Source: Hydrogenimonas sp. (GTDB lineage: Bacteria; Campylobacterota; Campylobacteria; Campylobacterales; Hydrogenimonadaceae). From it: 51,740 nt of DNA. The position numbers and the translations under genes were made by a program. A model generated the notes under the pieces. That model made no database searches and had not been told where the DNA came from. It saw only the letters and a program-made list of their open reading frames with translations. Location of the stretch: NCBI GenBank assembly GCA_015490295.1, contig WFYC01000022.1:1-51740 (forward strand). The letters are read 5' to 3'. Of this stretch, positions 43,665 through 51,491 are shown one piece after another; position 1 is the stretch's first letter; each line of letters starts with the position of its first letter.

Positions 43665-44273
43665 CTATTTTTCAAGAGATTTAAAGAACTCATAAGCGGC
43701 AAAATTTTTGGGATCCAGAATCAAGATATCTTCATAAACTTTTTTAGCGTTCTCTATATCATTCGATCTTTGATATATCTTTGCCAAAAGCTCCAAAAAA
43801 GGAGTATCGGTTGGATATAGAGAGAGCATCTTGTAAGCTATGGCTTTAGCGTTAGTCAAATCTTTCTTTCCTATGAGGATTTTCATAAGATATAAATTTG
43901 CATAATAGCTATAATAATCCGTTTTTAAAATATCGTTACATATCTTAAGTGCGTCATCATATTTTTGCTGAAGAATATATATGTTAATTATTCCAAGTCT
44001 AGGAGGTATTGCGCTTTTTATGGCTATAGCCGCTTTTTTGTAATGATGGAGCGCATTTTTATACTTTTTATCTAGATAATAGAGCCACCCCAGCCTAAGA
44101 TTTGGCGTATAGGCATCGGGATATTTTTGTATTACGGGCATTAAAGATTTTATAGCATCTTCATAATCTCCCATCTTTTCATAATTATAGGAGTCATAAT
44201 AAGATTTCTTTATAAAATCATCATAAGCGAAAGAGAAAACGGCCAATATTGCAAACAAGACTACTTTTTTCAT
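43665..44273 (-). CDS. periplasmic TPR protein
   Basis: 202 residues with a signal peptide (about 1-16, ending FSFA) and at least four TPR-like repeats: YNYEKMGDYEDAIKSLMPVI, LGWLYYLDKKYKNALHHYKK, LQQKYDDALKICNDIL and LAKIYQRSNDIENAKKVYED. It is probably a protein-interaction scaffold in the periplasm. It lies 8 nt after the outer-membrane barrel gene and is last in the six-gene operon starting at 49877. Its place suggests it links the barrel to other parts of the system. Confidence 0.85.
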   Translation of the reverse strand: MKKVVLFAILAVFSFAYDDFIKKSYYDSYNYEKMGDYEDAIKSLMPVIQKYPDAYTPNLRLGWLYYLDKKYKNALHHYKKAAIAIKSAIPPRLGIINIYILQQKYDDALKICNDILKTDYYSYYANLYLMKILIGKKDLTNAKAIAYKMLSLYPTDTPFLELLAKIYQRSNDIENAKKVYEDILILDPKNFAAYEFFKSLEK

Positions 44274-44281
44274 AGTTCCCC

Positions 44282-45181
44282 CTAGAAAATATAGCTAAAC
44301 GACAACCCCGCCGCCAACATATTTGTATCTTCTGCTGTCTCGGTATCGGTGAATTTTTCATATGCCAGGTCGAAACTGAAGCCAAGACTCTCTTTTATTT
44401 TATAGTCTATTATCAGTCCGGCTCCACCATTGTGAATCTCCGCAAGATTATATACCGTGAACCCTCCATTTCTCACCGCATAGGCTTGTTTACCCCCCCA
44501 AACGTATCCGGTGGTTGTAAATTTTCCGTAATAGTTAGTAACTGAAAGCTGGACGGAGTGGTTGTTGTTGTCATACTCTGCAACACTCCTGATGGTATGC
44601 ATATTTGGTCTGGCACTGTGACTGTTTACCGTTTCTACAATGTTGCTCTCTTCAAACGTAATATAGAAATATTGCAGATTCAGGTAAAAATCCCCTGATT
44701 GACGAGTATGCAAATATTTACCTACCGATGGAGTCAGCTGCCATACGTTCAGAGTTGGAGAGAAGTTGCCATAGTTGGAGTAATACCCATCTATCCCAAT
44801 ATCGAAACTCTCTTTTTCATAATATCTTACCCCTCCGAAAAAGACCATGCCTCCGTCGGTAAGGTAGTCATCCGAATCAATATAGTGAACCCCTCCTTTA
44901 AGAATATAGTTCTGCACGCTGTAGTTTGAATATACAAACGTAAAATCGTTTTGGCCGAAAGTCTGAGTATTGTCTTTATAGTCCAGCTTTAAATAGCTAT
45001 ACTGTATATCCAACTGCTGTTGCATATCTTTTCTGCTCATATAGACTCCGCCGTAAAAACCATTCTCTTTTACGCTGTTGTCTCCATAGCCAACATAACC
45101 GGCAAACGGTGTAACCGTATTTATCTCCGACGCAACCAAAGATAAAACCGTTAACAAAAACAACAATACTGTTTTTCTCAC
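44282..45181 (-). CDS. outer-membrane beta-barrel protein
   Basis: 299 residues with a signal peptide (about 1-18). Many alternating-hydrophobicity strands rich in Tyr, Gly and Asn follow (MQQQLDIQYSYLKLDYKD, YILKGGVHYIDSD, GGVRYYEKESFDIGIDGYYS). The C-terminal strand ends GLSFSYIF with the terminal Phe recognised by the Bam complex. No porin family is recognised by eye; about 12-14 strands seem possible. It overlaps the upstream transporter-M23 gene by 4 nt, implying a joint role. Confidence 0.85.
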   Translation of the reverse strand: MRKTVLLFLLTVLSLVASEINTVTPFAGYVGYGDNSVKENGFYGGVYMSRKDMQQQLDIQYSYLKLDYKDNTQTFGQNDFTFVYSNYSVQNYILKGGVHYIDSDDYLTDGGMVFFGGVRYYEKESFDIGIDGYYSNYGNFSPTLNVWQLTPSVGKYLHTRQSGDFYLNLQYFYITFEESNIVETVNSHSARPNMHTIRSVAEYDNNNHSVQLSVTNYYGKFTTTGYVWGGKQAYAVRNGGFTVYNLAEIHNGGAGLIIDYKIKESLGFSFDLAYEKFTDTETAEDTNMLAAGLSFSYIF

Positions 45182-47274
45182 TTTTTTCTCCTTATAATCA
45201 AGTTTTCAACCATAATTGAGTCAAAAAAATGTATTTCATCTATCTTGACAGAGCAGATTATTTTTCTTCCATTCAACTCAATTTCACCTTTTATAAAATC
45301 ATTCTCTTTTTCCCAAGTCCCCCTATATAAAAACCTTCGACTGAAAAAAGAGGCCAAAAACATTAAAAGTTCTTTTTTAAACCAACCAAAAACGATTCTG
45401 GGTGTCAGCGTATCTCTCCATCTTACCCTTCTATTGTCGACAAGTGGGACTCTCGGAACGGCAATGAAAAACTTTTTGAGGTAACTGCTGTCACTTCCCA
45501 CATAATCATAAAAGTAGAACACTCCGTAATCTTTGGCGAAGAAGAGCCGGTTCTTCTTCTCATCTTCAAAGAAAAACCTCCCGCTGAATCTATCCATCTC
45601 CACTCTTATACTGAACTCGTCTATTCTCTTTTCATCTTCAAAAACTTCGTAACGATACACAGAATCCAATACGAAACTGAATTTGCTGTCCAATGATTTA
45701 TCGGCGCTGAAGCTGGATATCTTCTCATCTTTTTTAGGTCTATCATAAAAAAAGATACTCTCTTTTTTCAAATAGGCAACGAAGTTGAAAGGGATCGTTT
45801 TGGAGCCTAGATATGAATTTTCTTGAACCTGGATATGAATATGGGGTTCAGGCGAATATCCGCTGTTGCCGCAAAGCGCAACTATCTGTCCCGCTTCAAC
45901 GTAATCACCTTTTTTTACCCGCAAAGAGTTTTGAGCCAGGTGAGAGACCTCTACATAAGCGCCGCCGCTTGTAGATAAGACTAGGTAGTTCCCCCAGTTG
46001 TTAATATTGTCCACCTCTCCTATCGGGTTGTCTTTATGGTGTGATACCGCTTCGACAACATATCCGCTAACAGGAGACAACACCGGCTTTTTGAACGCAT
46101 AGTAGTCTTCAGGAAAGTTCCCGCTGTTTTTGTAGCTTTTGCCATCTTTGTCTCTTATAACAAAATCGTAGGCATATCTCCATCTGCCCTGATGGGTCCA
46201 GATATCATCAAAAGCCTGGTATACGCTCCATGTCCCCGAAAAGGGCAAAAATATACCGACTTCGTTCGTTCTGAACCTGAAAAGGCTCATAAGGTAGTAG
46301 CTCAAACTGTTTTCGGGGGTTCTCTTTATCACATATGCAAACTCTTTATATCTTACAAGACGCAGCACAAATAAAAAACTTATAACAGTGAAATTAAAAG
46401 GCAGGGTAAAAACGGGGATCTTGTATAGAGTCCAAAAAATCGCCGTAGAGTCTACAAGCAACACCGAAATTCCCACCCCGAGCATTGCCATCAAATAGCT
46501 TCTGATACCGGGGATCAAAAATATAGAGCCTAAAGCAATAGCGACCAAAACATAATTAAACCCGTACGGATTTAACAAAGAAGAGATAAACGAACCGCTT
46601 AGCAGCGAATGTATATAGACTCCAAAGTAGTATCCGGCAACTGCTAAAATTGCCATTATTCTGGAATGAAAAAGAATGAAAATAAAAAAGAAGACTCCAA
46701 CCCAAAAATTGGGCAAGAAAAGAATAGTCCCTATAGATTTGAAAAAAGAGTCTATCCAAACAGGTACGTAAATAGATCCGTTTAAAAGTCCGGAATGGTT
46801 GTAAAGAGTCTCTATAAAAAGGTTTGAGTAATTAAGCGACGCTAAATAAACGATAGAGCTGACTATTGCAAAAGGCAGCGATAATATAGGAATGAGATAG
46901 ATTGAAAAGAGAGTATGCAAAACTATGGTAACCAAAAAGGTTAAAACGGAAGCGACGGCTATCAAAAAAACGGTTACGAGTGAGAGTTTAAACAGAAAAC
47001 CTATGCTCATTCCCACCAGCAAAGGGTTATAGATATAAAAGCCGCTCTCCAAAAACTCGGGGTCCATCCTGATATAAGCGGCAAAAAGAAGGACGAAAAC
47101 CACTCCCAAAAGACCGCTTATCGCAACGTTTGGATTAATGAACGTCGCTATCAAAAGCAGGATGCCTATCTTTTTATTTTTAATAAACAGTATCTCCGCA
47201 TATGCGGATAAAATAGAGTTGGTGTAAGATTGAAAACTTTTCAAACCAGCCGTATCGATCAAAGATTTCATCAT
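45178..47274 (-). CDS. urea-transporter-like membrane domain fused to an M23 (LytM-type) domain
   Basis: 698 residues. Residues 1-310 contain about 10-12 helices with urea-transporter-like repeat motifs IYNPLLVGMSIGFLF (about 81-95) and LNPYGFNYVLVAIALGSIFL (234-253). Residues about 340-500 resemble an M23 peptidase: WRYAYDF (365-371), SHL (444-446) and PHIHIQV (477-483). The canonical HxGxD is replaced by RYAYD, so one zinc ligand is missing at the expected place, although His361 is close. Residues 510-698 form an additional, mostly beta, hydrophilic domain of unknown kind. It overlaps both operon neighbours by 4 nt. Confidence 0.8.
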   Translation of the reverse strand: MMKSLIDTAGLKSFQSYTNSILSAYAEILFIKNKKIGILLLIATFINPNVAISGLLGVVFVLLFAAYIRMDPEFLESGFYIYNPLLVGMSIGFLFKLSLVTVFLIAVASVLTFLVTIVLHTLFSIYLIPILSLPFAIVSSIVYLASLNYSNLFIETLYNHSGLLNGSIYVPVWIDSFFKSIGTILFLPNFWVGVFFFIFILFHSRIMAILAVAGYYFGVYIHSLLSGSFISSLLNPYGFNYVLVAIALGSIFLIPGIRSYLMAMLGVGISVLLVDSTAIFWTLYKIPVFTLPFNFTVISFLFVLRLVRYKEFAYVIKRTPENSLSYYLMSLFRFRTNEVGIFLPFSGTWSVYQAFDDIWTHQGRWRYAYDFVIRDKDGKSYKNSGNFPEDYYAFKKPVLSPVSGYVVEAVSHHKDNPIGEVDNINNWGNYLVLSTSGGAYVEVSHLAQNSLRVKKGDYVEAGQIVALCGNSGYSPEPHIHIQVQENSYLGSKTIPFNFVAYLKKESIFFYDRPKKDEKISSFSADKSLDSKFSFVLDSVYRYEVFEDEKRIDEFSIRVEMDRFSGRFFFEDEKKNRLFFAKDYGVFYFYDYVGSDSSYLKKFFIAVPRVPLVDNRRVRWRDTLTPRIVFGWFKKELLMFLASFFSRRFLYRGTWEKENDFIKGEIELNGRKIICSVKIDEIHFFDSIMVENLIIRRKK

Positions 47275-48620
47275 TTAAGTTTCAGTTTTTCCGGTAAAAT
47301 CTCTCTGTTTTCTATATCGCTCAACTCCTCTCTTTCTCTTATCAACTCCACGTTTCCGTCTTCCGTGACCATCAAAACTCTCGGTCTATACCTGATAAAC
47401 TGCATCCACTGGGTAATGTTATATGCCCCTACCGGAGAGATCACGAGCTTGTCCCCTCTTCTTAGCCTCGGAAGCAGGATCGACTCGTCTATTACGTCTA
47501 TGTTCATACATAGCGGCCCGTTTATCATGGCCGGTTCACTTATACCGCTAATTTCTCTCGTCAACTCAATGTTAAATTTATACCAGAAATAGGTATATAA
47601 AAGATTTACGCCCGCATCTACAATGTAGCTTCTCCTGGAATCTGGCAAAGTTTTGCTGGCAACCACCGAAGTCACCAGGTATCCGGCCTCGTCTATAAGA
47701 TGCCTTCCGGTTTCAAGATAGAGTTTTGGGTAGCTGTTTCCTCTGATGTTTTCATACAGTGCGCTTGTTATGGCTTCCGCATAATCGTCGATTGTCGGAA
47801 CGACAACTTCCGGCGGCTGGTAGATACCCCTTAGATGGTTTTTTGAAGCGAAACCTCCGCCGACATCGATATACTCTATCGTAAATCCGACCTTCTCTTC
47901 CACTTCATTCATCAACCTGACCATTTTTGTGGTCTCTACCTTATATGCGTTCGCATCCAGCATAAAAGTTCCGATATGAGCGTGAAGACCTGTGAGCCTG
48001 AGTTTACCGCCGGCTTTTATACGTTTTACCGCATCCATCGCCTGACCGCTTTCTATATTGAACCCGAAGCGACTCCATTGCGGGTAGATTCCGGTATCCA
48101 TATTGAGTCTTATGGCCACAGGAATCTCGGATCCAAGCTCATCGGCAACCTTTTCAAGATCGTTTATCTCATCGAAAGTATCTATATGGATCTTGGCACC
48201 CTCTTTCGCCGCCGTAACCAAAGAGTCGTAAGGCTTATAGGGACCGTTGTATATGATATCTTTCCCCTCTATGCCCAACTCTCTCGCTTTTTCATACTCA
48301 AATTCGCTCACAACTTCGGCAATAGCACCTTCCTGGTGAAAAACCGCACAGACCGCCTTTAGATAATTGGTCTTATAGCTCCATCCAAACTGCACATTTG
48401 GATATCTGCTCGAAAACGCTTCATAAGCACTTCTGTACTTCTCTCTTATAGCCTTTTCATCAAAAATAAAGAGCGGGGAGCCGAATCTCTCCACCATCTC
48501 GTCAATAGCCACTCCCCCTATCTTTTTTCTGATTTTCTGTTTCGGCATGGGAACTCCGGCTTTCGAGTGGCTGCTCTCTACCTTGATTATGGTAGGTTTT
48601 TCATAAGTTTTTATAGCCAT
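47271..48620 (-). CDS. fold-type III PLP decarboxylase (DapDC-like) with leader-like N-terminal tail
   Basis: 449 residues from the ATG at 48620, which has AAGGAG upstream; an in-frame start at 48647 is weaker. The PLP lysine is K83 (WSYKTNYLKA), with EVVSEFEYEKA, GLHAHIGTFM (211-220), DVGGGFASK (252-260), LETGRHLIDEAG and the second-subunit Cys region NGPLCMNIDVIDE. It belongs to the diaminopimelate/ornithine decarboxylase superfamily, but the substrate is unassigned. Residues 1-36 precede the normal start of the fold and include TYEKPTIIKV (YxxPxI), similar to RiPP leader motifs. It overlaps the ATP-grasp gene by 20 nt. Confidence 0.88.
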   Translation of the reverse strand: MAIKTYEKPTIIKVESSHSKAGVPMPKQKIRKKIGGVAIDEMVERFGSPLFIFDEKAIREKYRSAYEAFSSRYPNVQFGWSYKTNYLKAVCAVFHQEGAIAEVVSEFEYEKARELGIEGKDIIYNGPYKPYDSLVTAAKEGAKIHIDTFDEINDLEKVADELGSEIPVAIRLNMDTGIYPQWSRFGFNIESGQAMDAVKRIKAGGKLRLTGLHAHIGTFMLDANAYKVETTKMVRLMNEVEEKVGFTIEYIDVGGGFASKNHLRGIYQPPEVVVPTIDDYAEAITSALYENIRGNSYPKLYLETGRHLIDEAGYLVTSVVASKTLPDSRRSYIVDAGVNLLYTYFWYKFNIELTREISGISEPAMINGPLCMNIDVIDESILLPRLRRGDKLVISPVGAYNITQWMQFIRYRPRVLMVTEDGNVELIREREELSDIENREILPEKLKLK

Positions 48621-49644
48621 TGCTTTCTCCTTTCGTGGCCAGTTCACTCAGCTTGTCGATATCCGTAATAAGCTCGTATGTATATCTGACCATCATCTTT
48701 CCGCTCTCATAATCGCCCGACATATCACTATTCTTATCGAACATAACGTCTAAAACTCTTTTGGGAAGATTCACCCCCACACCCGTGGCAAAATATACCC
48801 AGGCCGGGAATCGCGGATTTATCTCTATCAAAATGATATTATCTTCATCGACTATACACTCGAGCTCAAAAGGACCTTTCCACTTATATTTGCCAACGAA
48901 ATCTTCGGCGACTTTCAGCAGCTTCTCATGCTTGATCGTAACGCCGTTCCATATCTTTCCTAGATGAGTAGTTGTCATCTTTTTTATAGCCACGAGCCCC
49001 AAAGAGTTCCCTTTTCCGTCACCAGCGCCTATGACGTTGAGCTCATCCCCTTTTACAATCTCCTGAACCAGTATGGGGAAGCCCCACTCGTTCGAGATCT
49101 CCGTAAAATAGTAAACGGCCTCAGGTAAAGATTTGGCTTTATATGCCTTGTAATAGTTACCTTTTACTACACACGGAAATCCTATCTCGTTTACCGCCTT
49201 TTTAAGCTGGTCGATATTGAAAACTTTTTTGGTTTTCGGATACGAAATTTCCAGTACTTCACTAATATCGCCAAGATTCTCTTTGCTTCTTAGTTCAAAC
49301 TGCTCAAGGTTCGGCAGGAAAGTTTTTATACCTGCCTCCTTCAAATCATCCTGATACTTGATATACGACGGCAACTCCGCATCCAGTGTGGGAATAACGG
49401 CATCAAGACCGTAACTCTCTTTTATATACAAAAGCCTGTTAAATATAGGCTCCCACCCTTGTGACGGGTAGGTCAAAACGTAGCTTTTGTCTATCACAAA
49501 ATCCATAAAGTTGCCCGGGTCCTGGACATCGTAGCTAAGACCCACGGTCTTTATGGAAGAGTCGGCTTCCTTTAAACTTCTCGCCACACCGATACCCGGC
49601 CCGGGATTGTCCGTATCGTTTACTCCGCTAATCGCTACAATCAT
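48601..49644 (-). CDS. ATP-grasp ligase (carbamoyl-phosphate-synthase-like)
   Basis: 347 residues. The N-terminal pre-ATP-grasp domain is Rossmann-like (MIVAISGVNDTDNPGPGIGV). The ATP-grasp fold follows (about 105-300), with FPCVVKGNYYKAYKAKS (ATP-binding Lys), PILVQEIVKGDELNVIGAGD and metal-binding ELECIVDEDNIILIEINPRF (EINPR). Such enzymes join a carboxylate to an amine or thiol through an acyl phosphate. The substrate is unknown. It shares an ATGA junction with the PqqD-like gene, so the two are translationally coupled, and it is the likely bond-forming enzyme of the operon. Confidence 0.9.
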   Translation of the reverse strand: MIVAISGVNDTDNPGPGIGVARSLKEADSSIKTVGLSYDVQDPGNFMDFVIDKSYVLTYPSQGWEPIFNRLLYIKESYGLDAVIPTLDAELPSYIKYQDDLKEAGIKTFLPNLEQFELRSKENLGDISEVLEISYPKTKKVFNIDQLKKAVNEIGFPCVVKGNYYKAYKAKSLPEAVYYFTEISNEWGFPILVQEIVKGDELNVIGAGDGKGNSLGLVAIKKMTTTHLGKIWNGVTIKHEKLLKVAEDFVGKYKWKGPFELECIVDEDNIILIEINPRFPAWVYFATGVGVNLPKRVLDVMFDKNSDMSGDYESGKMMVRYTYELITDIDKLSELATKGESNGYKNL

Positions 49645-49877
49645 GGCAGCAGTCCATAAAGTTTCAGTTTCTCTTTAAAATCCAAAACATCGTTCAGGGC
49701 CTCCTCCTGAGTCACATCATACTCTTCGGAAAGCTTTTTCGCTATCTCTTTCTCTTCAACTCCCCTGGCTAAATCTTCTATAATCTCTTTAGCCGTCTCA
49801 TTCAGAGTAAAAGTCTCGCCGCTTGTCGGATCGAACGCAAAACCGTTTTTGTTAACAGCCAAATTCTCTATCCTCAT
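49641..49877 (-). CDS. PqqD-family small protein (RiPP recognition-element fold)
   Basis: 78 residues with the PqqD pattern: GFAFDPTSGETFTLNETAKE (the strand pair plus helix that form a peptide-binding winged helix), then EIIEDLARGVEEKEIAKKLS and a DVLDFKEKLKLYGLL C-terminal helix. In other systems this fold binds leader peptides. No radical SAM PqqE or other PQQ gene is present, so PQQ synthesis is not implied. AAGGAG lies 6 nt before the ATG. First gene of the operon, ATGA-coupled to the ATP-grasp gene. Confidence 0.88.
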   Translation of the reverse strand: MRIENLAVNKNGFAFDPTSGETFTLNETAKEIIEDLARGVEEKEIAKKLSEEYDVTQEEALNDVLDFKEKLKLYGLLP

Positions 49878-49940: not shown

Positions 49941-49978
49941 CGCAACCGCACGCAACCGGGGTCACGCAACCGGGGTCA
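49941..49978. repeat. short tandem repeats at the left end of the transposase unit
   Basis: CGCAACCGGGGTCA occurs twice head to tail (49951-49964 and 49965-49978), preceded by a partial copy, CGCAACCGCA (49941-49950). The second copy merges with the left inverted end of the transposase unit. Confidence 0.85.
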
Positions 49979-50835
49979 GGTGATGCCAATGCTACTTGCC
50001 GTCCTTTTTATAATCCTCTGAACAGTCGCCTGATTAAGCCCAAGAAACTTTGCGATTCTATACTGCGAAAAGCCTTCACGGTAAGCCTCTACTATTCGTC
50101 TGTTTCTCTCTTTTTTATCTTCTGCGTTTTCAAGCAGCTCTTTGAGCCGCTCATCTTTTAGCCCCTCATTCTCCAAAGGAGCGTCAATCGTAGATGCCGC
50201 CTTTTTCAAAAGCTTCATGTCATCCATATCGGGAGGGGTCCGGAAAAACTCATTCATGGCGTCTTTATCACCCCTGTATAGTTTTAAAAGCCAACTCTTT
50301 TTCAACCACTTCGGCATAGGTATATCGTTTAGAAAGTAGTATGAGGAGGCATATGGGTACTCGCCGCACTTTCGTACTATCTTTGCCTCTACCGGGTTTA
50401 GTTCAATATAGCGGATAAGCGTGTAGAGATACGCCTCATCGGTTACAATGAAGCTTTTGAAGCGCCCCTGCCAAAGGTGGCCGGATCTATCGTATTTTCT
50501 GTTGAAGTAGATGGCGTAGTTGGCATTAATCTGGCGCATGAATCTTGAGAGGTTCGGCTTTTTTGTCTCTATGAGCAGATGGTAGTGGTTGCTCATCAGG
50601 CAGTAGTTATGCACAACCACACCATACGCCCGTGACTCATTAGAGAGAATATCCAAAAACTTCAGATAATCCGCATCCTCTTCAAACACGTTTCGCTGTC
50701 CGACACCGCGGTTTACGATATGGTAATACCCCGGTAAATCGATCCTTGGTCTTCTTGCCATACCCTCTCCTTTTTTGCTTTGTTGGAAAGTTTAGCATGT
50801 TTATGTTTAAAATAGCATTAGCATCACCTGACCCC
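49972..50835 (-). mobile_element. REP-associated tyrosine transposase unit with 23-bp inverted ends
   Basis: The transposase gene is enclosed by inverted ends at 49972-49994 and 50813-50835. They begin GGGGTCAGGTGATGC and match at 22 of 23 positions. The left end supplies the last codons and stop of the transposase gene. The right end lies inside the C-terminal coding part of the membrane protein gene at 51491. The layout is that of RAYT genes flanked by inverted REP-like sequences rather than a classical IS. Confidence 0.78.
49976..50761 (-). CDS. REP-associated tyrosine transposase (TnpA_REP/Y1 family)
   Basis: 261-residue HUH-type nuclease. The N-terminus ARRPRIDLPGYYHIVNRGVG is the family start. 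The metal-binding HUH motif is in CLMSNHYHLLIET, followed by RFMRQINANYAIYFNRKYDR, HLWQGRFKSFIV and the YIELNPVEAKIV block near the catalytic Tyr. A C-terminal helix-turn-helix (about 220-255, YRIAKFLGLNQATVQRIIKR) is appended. The ribosome site AAGGAG precedes the ATG. The stop codon lies in the left inverted end, so element end and gene end coincide. It appears intact. Confidence 0.9.
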   Translation of the reverse strand: MARRPRIDLPGYYHIVNRGVGQRNVFEEDADYLKFLDILSNESRAYGVVVHNYCLMSNHYHLLIETKKPNLSRFMRQINANYAIYFNRKYDRSGHLWQGRFKSFIVTDEAYLYTLIRYIELNPVEAKIVRKCGEYPYASSYYFLNDIPMPKWLKKSWLLKLYRGDKDAMNEFFRTPPDMDDMKLLKKAASTIDAPLENEGLKDERLKELLENAEDKKERNRRIVEAYREGFSQYRIAKFLGLNQATVQRIIKRTASSIGIT

Positions 50836-51491
50836 GCATTTCTAAATATCAACCGGTTGGAAGCTTTTTTATCTATCACGGTAACTGGATATATATCTTT
50901 CTTTTTATTTCCATAGCCATCTATTCGTATTTCTACAATATCTTCTAAAGGAATCTTTTTTTTGTAAAAAATTCCCCAAATTGGCTTTAAAATTATAAAA
51001 TCAAACCAATTCATTTCTACATCGCTTGCTGGAATAAATAAAAAACCATCTTTCATAATAACTTTTTTATTTGTGAAATAAGCTTTTATTGCAGGTATCA
51101 GTGCTAAGACAAAAATACTCTCAAAAGCTAAAATACCAATAACGATTTCTTTTACTTTTGGATTTTCGAAAATAGTAAGTCCTCCTGTATAAAATAAAAA
51201 ACCTAGGACTACAAAAAGAACAATTGCAGCTAAAACATATAGTGCTGCTAAAAACTTAAGAAATCCAACAAATAAAATAAATAATAAAATAATAGGTAAT
51301 ATAGTATTATTAGCTGTATTTGAGGCCTGATCAGGAAAAATAAAAAATATATAATATATTCCTATGATAAATATTCCTATGGAAATTATATTAATAAAAA
51401 CATTTTCCGAGTATCGTTTTCCCAAATGAAAATCTACAATTTCTATTCCACCTCTTTTATATTCTTGTTCTAGTACTTTATTGTCTGACAT
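50682..51491 (-). pseudogene. membrane protein with bacterial-PH-like domain, 3' end replaced by transposase unit
   Basis: The native part (51491 to about 50836, some 218 residues) has four hydrophobic helices (about 31-51, 64-80, 84-104, 116-134). A PH/YcxB-like region follows (KVIMKDGFLFIPASDVEMNW, KKIPLEDIVEIRIDGYGNKK). At IFRN the frame enters the right end of the transposase unit and reads a foreign tail starting AGSGDAN for about 51 residues. The true C-terminus is therefore lost or altered. Its start overlaps the upstream HNH-like gene by 14 nt. The DNA is very AT-rich. Confidence 0.7.

What the first reader, a model, noticed from the sequence alone, without database searches (positions are those of the whole stretch)
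48513..48620. Decarboxylase carries a RiPP-leader-like tail beside a PqqD-type recognition protein
Seen: residues 1-36 of the decarboxylase precede the normal fold start and contain Y6, P9 and I11 in TYEKPTIIKV. Known: lasso-peptide leaders carry YxxPxL, which is bound by the PqqD-like B1 recognition element. Inferred: the 78-residue PqqD-like protein may dock on the enzyme's own tail, either recruiting the decarboxylase to the ATP-grasp enzyme or acting on a tail that is itself modified or cleaved. An enzyme with a built-in leader would be unusual.
Basis: partly seen in the sequence, partly recalled or inferred. Interest (0 to 1): 0.78.

Follow-up and report, generated by a model that had tools for sequence, protein, structure and literature searches.

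The report
Enzyme with built-in RiPP-leader docking tail
A widespread but undescribed bacterial pathway appears to have borrowed the 'address label' that antibiotic-like peptides use to find their modifying enzymes, and put it on the front of an ordinary decarboxylase so that a small adaptor protein can grip it and probably bring it to its partner enzyme.

Summary
The decarboxylase (47271-48620, minus strand) starts with YEKPTI...SKAG ahead of its fold. I collected 120 distinct homologues from several phyla; all have [Y/W/F]xxPx[I/L/V/F/M], usually followed by NKFG. A PqqD-type protein lies upstream in all 112 with enough sequence. The one close homologue without the tail comes from a genome with no detectable PqqD; LysA-type paralogues lack the tail. 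The PqqD's nearest solved structures are lasso B1 proteins crystallised with YxxP leaders. Its Asp63, equivalent to the residue that hydrogen-bonds the leader Tyr, co-varies with the tail aromatic: acidic in 79/79 Y tails, never in the 4 F or 10 WxPP tails. It ranks first of 498 columns, but rests on only two independent evolutionary switches. The tail is disordered in a predicted model, and a profile of it finds no other tail-bearing protein in 50 genomes. The cassette is PqqD, ATP-grasp, tailed decarboxylase, urea-transporter/M23 fusion, usually plus TPR and outer-membrane-like proteins. Best reading: RRE-leader recognition reused to dock an enzyme, probably onto the ATP-grasp ligase. Docking partner and product are inferred. 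I found no published description in the open library.

The parts
48588..48605 (-). Y6-E-K-P9-T-I11: leader-like recognition motif at the N-terminus of the decarboxylase
   Evidence: Pro invariant and aromatic Y/W/F in 78 representatives under 80% identity
48555..48563 (-). K20-A-G22: the window's version of the second tail motif (NKFG in most relatives)
   Evidence: K 66/78, F 53/78, G 65/78 at the register used; K20 and G22 nearly invariant in alignment A1
48522..48554 (-). variable linker, residues 23-33, between tail and enzyme fold
   Evidence: motif aromatic to fold start is 28 residues in 59/78 representatives; relaxed codon changes 14:14
47271..48620 (-). tailed alanine-racemase-fold (fold III) PLP decarboxylase, 449 aa
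   Evidence: Pfam Orn_Arg_deC_N and Orn_DAP_Arg_deC; closest solved relative N-citrylornithine decarboxylase 7KH2
48601..49644 (-). ATP-grasp ligase, 347 aa; overlaps the decarboxylase start by 20 bp
   Evidence: Pfam ATPgrasp_Ter and ATP-grasp_3 above cut-off; found in all 59 loci compared
49641..49877 (-). PqqD-type RiPP recognition element, 78 aa; overlaps the ATP-grasp start by 4 bp
   Evidence: PF05402 54 bits; sequence and model match TfuB1 and TbiB1 leader complexes
49800..49802 (-). PqqD Asn26, equivalent of LppB N33 (fixes the leader kink at Pro)
   Evidence: N in 108/112 homologues; role from PMC13381572
49689..49691 (-). PqqD Asp63, equivalent of LppB D70 (hydrogen-bonds the leader Tyr); co-varies with the tail aromatic
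   Evidence: role from PMC13381572
49677..49679 (-). PqqD Phe67, equivalent of LppB F74 / PbaB1 F83 (wall between the two leader pockets)
   Evidence: F in 105/112; role from PMC13381572
45178..47274 (-). urea-transporter (UT) domain fused to an M23 peptidase domain, 698 aa; overlaps the decarboxylase stop
   Evidence: Pfam UT 211 bits, M23 44 bits; present in 58 of 59 loci; H361, D370, H445, H478, H480 in 55/55
44282..45181 (-). 299-aa protein without Pfam or NCBIfam match, probably an outer-membrane beta-barrel (inferred); cassette member
   Evidence: homologues in 29 of 59 loci
43665..44273 (-). TPR-repeat protein, cassette member
   Evidence: TPR families; TPR protein in 49 of 59 loci

Best explanation
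The N-terminus of the decarboxylase is a genuine RRE-binding tail. The discrete PqqD-type protein grips Y6-x-x-P9-x-I11 in its groove, in the way lasso B1 proteins grip leader peptides, and so holds the decarboxylase through a flexible tether. The most likely purpose is to bring it to the ATP-grasp ligase encoded between the two. In the proposed pathway the ATP-grasp enzyme makes an amide on a diamino acid, the tethered decarboxylase removes the alpha-carboxyl from that acylated intermediate, and the product is handled by the UT-M23 membrane protein with the OMP-like and TPR partners. Shown by sequence: the tail, its conservation, its linkage to PqqD, the matching pocket residues and their co-variation, and the conserved gene cassette. 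Inferred: physical binding, the ATP-grasp as docking partner, the order of reactions, and the product and its export.
For: (a) 120 distinct homologues, mean pairwise identity about 50% among representatives, keep the motif, Pro invariant in 78 of 78. (b) PqqD is upstream in 112/112 assessable loci and absent from the genome of the one close tailless homologue. (c) The PqqD's only PDB sequence hit is TfuB1 6JX3; the family profile's best hits are TbiB1, TfuB1 and PbaB1 (9X90), with LppB (9X8Z) and PQQ PqqD also found; the predicted fold best matches 6JX3 and 5V1U. (d) Asn26, Asp63 and Phe67 sit at the same spacing (37 and 4) as LppB N33, D70 and F74, which contact the leader's Pro kink, Tyr and pocket wall (PMC13381572). 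(e) Asp63 is D/E in 79/79 Y tails and 19/19 WxKP tails, Y/H in 4/4 F tails (no hydroxyl to bond) and A/S/G in 10/10 WxPP tails; top of 498 columns by normalised mutual information; both independent supported switches agree. (f) The tail is disordered in the model. (g) A tail profile over 50 genomes gave decarboxylases as the only hits below E 0.02. (h) Genes overlap by 4 and 20 bp and keep their order across phyla. (i) Thr343 replaces the DAP-binding Arg and Met372 follows the catalytic Cys, both as in N-citrylornithine decarboxylase, while that enzyme's citrate contacts His357 and Arg387 are Ile374 and Gln404 here, which suggests an acylated but non-citryl substrate.
Against: No binding was measured and no complex could be co-folded here. 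The tailless homologues lack the whole cassette, so presence/absence cannot separate PqqD from ATP-grasp or UT-M23. The co-variation counts only two independent switches (sign test not significant alone). No sequence evidence shows that PqqD touches the ATP-grasp enzyme; the NKFG part has no assigned partner.
Confidence: 0.72

Rival explanations
1. The decarboxylase is itself a RiPP-like substrate: the PqqD presents the tail (or the variable linker) to the ATP-grasp enzyme, which attaches something to it, for example at the NKFG lysine; the tail may act as a swinging arm or be cleaved.
For: The tail looks like a complete leader followed by a variable stretch of near-fixed length. ATP-grasp enzymes modify RiPP precursors in other systems (general knowledge). 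BtrK, a fold-III decarboxylase relative, acts on a carrier-bound substrate (PMC7857480).
Against: The Lys is not invariant (66/78; Thr in L142 and L166, Arg in L024) and no linker residue is conserved as an acceptor. No leader protease is conserved in the cassette apart from the M23 domain, which is attached to a membrane protein.
Confidence: 0.17
2. The tail and PqqD form a regulatory rather than a catalytic contact: PqqD senses free decarboxylase and controls enzyme activity or transcription.
For: In a group of Pseudomonadota loci the PqqD is the C-terminal domain of a TetR-type regulator (for example L135: TetR_N 29.3 bits over a cut-off of 24).
Against: Most loci, including the window, have a free 78-90 aa PqqD with no DNA-binding partner.
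Confidence: 0.08
3. The real client of the PqqD is an undetected short precursor peptide, and the decarboxylase tail mimics or competes with its leader.
For: Very short ORFs (under 40 codons stop to stop) were not scanned in the loci.
Against: A tail profile over 50 whole genomes finds no second tail-bearing protein below E 0.02 apart from a near-duplicate decarboxylase copy; no precursor is conserved in the cassette.
Confidence: 0.03

Closest known systems
Discrete lasso-peptide B1 recognition elements TfuB1 (6JX3), TbiB1 (5V1U/5V1V), PbaB1 (9X90) and the LPP protein LppB (9X8Z)
   Same: PqqD-type winged-helix fold; same Asn/Asp/Phe leader contacts at the same spacing as LppB; same [Y/W]xxPx[I/L/V] ligand (PMC13381572)
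   Different: The ligand is the N-terminus of an active enzyme rather than a short precursor peptide; no lasso cyclase or B2 protease in the neighbourhood
PQQ biosynthesis PqqD-PqqE-PqqA
   Same: A small chaperone binding a leader-type sequence and delivering it to an enzyme
   Different: None of PqqA, PqqE or PqqC is in the cassette; the delivered partner is a decarboxylase
N-citrylornithine decarboxylase FslC/FigC (7KH2), rhizoferrin synthesis
   Same: Closest solved relative of the decarboxylase; Thr in place of the DAP-binding Arg and Met after the catalytic Cys
   Different: Citrate-contacting His and Arg replaced by Ile374 and Gln404; similarity starts only at residue 29, after the tail; its partner is not an ATP-grasp/PqqD pair
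BtrK (butirosin) with the ATP-grasp ligase BtrJ and carrier BtrI
   Same: A fold-III decarboxylase working after an ATP-grasp ligase (BtrK: PMC7857480; BtrJ: own knowledge)
   Different: Uses a carrier protein; no RRE or leader tail known
Distant decarboxylase/ATP-grasp pair in an exopolysaccharide-type cluster (L197)
   Same: Adjacent fold-III decarboxylase and ATP-grasp genes
   Different: No PqqD and no tail

Membership tests
RiPP recognition element (PqqD-type, PF05402) | Sequence match above the curated cut-off | tested here: met
   54.1 bits against a 23.4 cut-off
RiPP recognition element (PqqD-type, PF05402) | Winged-helix fold like solved RRE-leader complexes | tested here: met
   Predicted model, pLDDT 91; best PDB match 6JX3_B, E 8e-4, TM 0.81
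RiPP recognition element (PqqD-type, PF05402) | Leader-contacting Asn, Asp and Phe | tested here: met
   N26, D63, F67 at LppB spacing (PMC13381572)
RiPP recognition element (PqqD-type, PF05402) | Serves a ribosomal precursor peptide | tested here: not met
   No tail-bearing small ORF in the loci or in 50 genomes; the only bearer found is the decarboxylase. The domain is an RRE; its client differs
Lasso-peptide biosynthetic gene cluster | Precursor, B2 protease and asparagine-synthetase-like cyclase beside B1 | tested here: not met
   Pfam of the window neighbours shows none; not among the conserved cassette families
RiPP leader sequence | [Y/W]xxPx[L/I/V] motif matched to an RRE | tested here: met
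   120 homologues; co-variation with the PqqD pocket
RiPP leader sequence | Followed by a core that is modified and released | not testable with these tools
   The variable linker leads straight into the enzyme fold; modification needs mass spectrometry
N-citrylornithine decarboxylase (NF041039 FslC) | Score above the family cut-off | tested here: not met
   246 bits against 500
N-citrylornithine decarboxylase (NF041039 FslC) | Citrate-contacting His357 and Arg387 | tested here: not met
   Ile374 and Gln404
Diaminopimelate decarboxylase (TIGR01048 lysA) | Score above cut-off; substrate-carboxylate Arg; acidic residue after the catalytic Cys | tested here: not met
   235 against 297.9 bits; Thr343 and Met372 instead
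HPr-rel-A system PqqD (TIGR04353) | Score above cut-off, and HprK-related kinase A nearby | tested here: inconclusive
   Window protein 37.1 against 35, six relatives below cut-off; the kinase was not searched for specifically

The most novel reading that the evidence does not exclude
RRE-leader recognition has been lifted out of RiPP biosynthesis as a protein-docking module: the enzyme, not a precursor peptide, wears the leader, and the same tail-RRE contact serves both to assemble a metabolic complex and, where the RRE is fused to a TetR regulator, to report the enzyme's state to transcription. The cassette would be a new, widespread small-molecule pathway with its own envelope handling system.
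Probability: 0.4. Interest if true: 0.88.

Novelty: new variant of a known kind. Interest (0 to 1): 0.78.

Why it matters
RREs are used in genome mining as strong evidence of a RiPP cluster. A conserved system, found in roughly 5-11% of the genomes sampled in six phylum-level groups, in which the RRE's client is an enzyme could explain some RREs near which no precursor has been found, would warn against calling all of them RiPP clusters, and offers a natural short-tag tethering pair for enzyme engineering. It also points to an undescribed pathway (ATP-grasp, decarboxylase, UT-M23 transporter/peptidase) whose product can now be looked for.

Tried and rejected
Chance motif: rejected, 2.1% background against 120 homologues. 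Wrong start codon: rejected, the tail is conserved and under purifying selection. A lasso or other RiPP cluster with a separate precursor: searched loci and 50 genomes, none found; the second tail hit in G1225 proved to be a near-duplicate decarboxylase at a contig end. The NKFG lysine as an obligatory attachment site: disfavoured, since it is missing in several members. Apparent tailed homologues without PqqD: each is cut by a contig or fetch edge before the PqqD position; L162 has 1.8 kb upstream, but in its relative L148 PqqD ends about 2.1 kb upstream. L006 has no cassette genes upstream but its frame is a chimera of unrelated gene pieces, so it was not counted as assessable. Annotated plasmids gave no homologue. 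Open-access literature searches for this gene combination or for enzyme-borne leaders found nothing; subscription papers and preprints are not covered.

Full report
What is there. On the minus strand the window encodes a PqqD-type protein (49641-49877, 78 aa), an ATP-grasp enzyme (48601-49644, 347 aa), a fold-III PLP decarboxylase (47271-48620, 449 aa), a urea-transporter/M23-peptidase fusion (45178-47274), a 299-aa protein with no family match, and a TPR protein, with short overlaps between the first four genes. The decarboxylase begins MAIKTYEKPTIIKVESSHSKAGVPMPKQKIRKK before its recognisable fold starts near residue 34. The AlphaFold2 model, built on 40 homologues, has mean pLDDT 91, with residues 11-24 below 50 and an ordered fold from about residue 30.

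Is the tail conserved? One scan of the genome contigs gave 19 loci whose record titles name Campylobacterales, Sulfurimonadaceae, Hydrogenothermaceae, Thermodesulfobacterium, Chitinispirillum, Bacteroidota, Acidocella and Bacteriovoracaceae. Whole-genome surveys then found matches in 16/298 genomes of the window's phylum, 27/296 of the Bacteroidales group's phylum, 39/349 of Acidocella's phylum, 9/191 of the Bacteriovoracaceae phylum, and 14/247 and 7/150 of the Thermodesulfobacterium and Chitinispirillum phyla (two of the 14 are the distant L186 and a LysA-like protein). After removing duplicates, 120 decarboxylases carry [Y/W/F]xxPx[I/L/V/F/M]. Among 78 representatives under 80% identity, with mean pairwise identity about 50%, Pro is invariant, the aromatic is Y 61, W 13, F 4, and a second motif NKFG follows (K 66, F 53, G 65 of 78). 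The distance from the aromatic residue to the fold is 28 residues in 59 of 78. Membership was decided by the fold, not by the tail; the only close family member with an intact N-terminus and no motif is L161.

Is it tied to PqqD? PqqD is just upstream in 112 of the 120; in the other eight the sequence ends too soon to tell. L161 (G654, 39% identical) has no tail, and its genome has no PqqD match at E 0.01; its neighbours are TIR, MoxR-like AAA and WD40 proteins. A more distant relative, L197, pairs with an ATP-grasp gene in an exopolysaccharide-type cluster and has neither tail nor a PqqD over cut-off in its genome. LysA-type paralogues of cassette-bearing genomes, including the window's own (L002), have no such tail; one paralogue's upstream frame contains a chance match. 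The confound is that L161 and L197 also lack the rest of the cassette.

Does the PqqD look able to bind it? By sequence the window protein hits one PDB chain, TfuB1 of 6JX3; the family profile hits TbiB1, TfuB1, PbaB1 and LppB, all solved with leaders, and PQQ PqqD. Its predicted structure best matches 6JX3 and 5V1U, both leader complexes. PMC13381572 reports that LppB N33 fixes the kink at the leader Pro, D70 hydrogen-bonds the leader Tyr and F74 lines the pockets, and that N33A nearly abolishes and D70A reduces binding. The window's N26, D63 and F67 have the same spacing. Across 112 pairs, N26 is kept in 108 and F67 in 105. D63 is D or E with every Y tail (79) and D with every WxKP tail (19), Y or H with all four F tails, and A, S or G with all ten WxPP tails. 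By weighted normalised mutual information it ranks first of 498 PqqD and decarboxylase columns, although shared descent inflates all such values. On the decarboxylase tree the switch occurred independently twice on supported branches and agreed both times; two events are too few for significance by themselves. Because the column was named in advance by the crystal structures, I regard this as the strongest evidence for direct contact.

Is any other protein wearing this tail? In all fetched loci (frames of 40 codons or more) only the decarboxylase matches. In 50 whole genomes decarboxylases were the only hits below E 0.02; one extra hit in G1225 is a near-identical decarboxylase copy at a contig end. 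So no separate precursor peptide was found that would explain the PqqD.

What the pathway may do. In 59 loci the core order PqqD, ATP-grasp, decarboxylase, UT-M23 is kept, the UT-M23 protein being found in 58, a TPR protein in 49 and the OMP-like protein in 29. The M23 zinc and catalytic residues are kept in 55/55. The decarboxylase's nearest solved relative is N-citrylornithine decarboxylase. Like that enzyme, and unlike diaminopimelate decarboxylase, it has Thr343 in place of the substrate-binding Arg and Met372 after the catalytic Cys371, but the two citrate contacts are changed. I infer that the ATP-grasp enzyme first acylates a diamino acid and the decarboxylase acts on the amide. The product, and the role of UT-M23, are unknown.

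A regulatory twist. In a group of Pseudomonadota loci the PqqD is the C-terminal part of a TetR-type regulator, which suggests that the same tail contact may report on the enzyme to transcription there. This was not followed beyond the domain search.

Verdict. Binding of the tail by PqqD: about 85% likely. Its purpose being to couple the decarboxylase to the ATP-grasp ligase: about 60-70%. A modified or cleaved tail remains possible. The parts are known kinds; an enzyme carrying an RRE-bound leader as a fixed, phylum-spanning feature is, as far as the open literature I could search shows, not described.

Noticed in passing
L131-L137, L139, L140 (for example L135:8651-9457): In a group of Pseudomonadota cassettes the PqqD is the C-terminal domain of a 224-276 aa TetR-type regulator, a fusion that could link enzyme-tail binding to transcription.
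   Followed up: partly
window 45178-47274: A urea-transporter domain fused to an M23 peptidase domain with intact metal and catalytic residues, conserved in 58 of 59 cassettes across phyla; function unknown.
   Followed up: partly
window 49976-50761, arms 49971-49997 and 50810-50836: Y1 (IS200-like) transposase flanked by 27-nt inverted repeats (93% complementary), about 100 bp upstream of the PqqD gene; looks like a RAYT/REP-type element.
   Followed up: partly
L161 (G654 contig 72): A tailless relative of the decarboxylase sits beside TIR-domain, MoxR-like AAA and WD40-repeat proteins, a conflict-system-like neighbourhood, in a genome without detectable PqqD.
   Followed up: partly
L197 (G1371 contig 78): A distant decarboxylase and ATP-grasp pair inside a glycosyltransferase/polymerase cluster, with no PqqD and no tail.
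   Followed up: partly
L027, L040, L041: Decayed (frameshifted or stop-containing) copies of the decarboxylase in Campylobacterota, indicating recent loss in some lineages.
   Followed up: no
L006 (G007 contig 164): A second-type decarboxylase whose open frame runs in from pieces resembling acetyl-CoA carboxylase and serine hydroxymethyltransferase; probably a misassembly.
   Followed up: no
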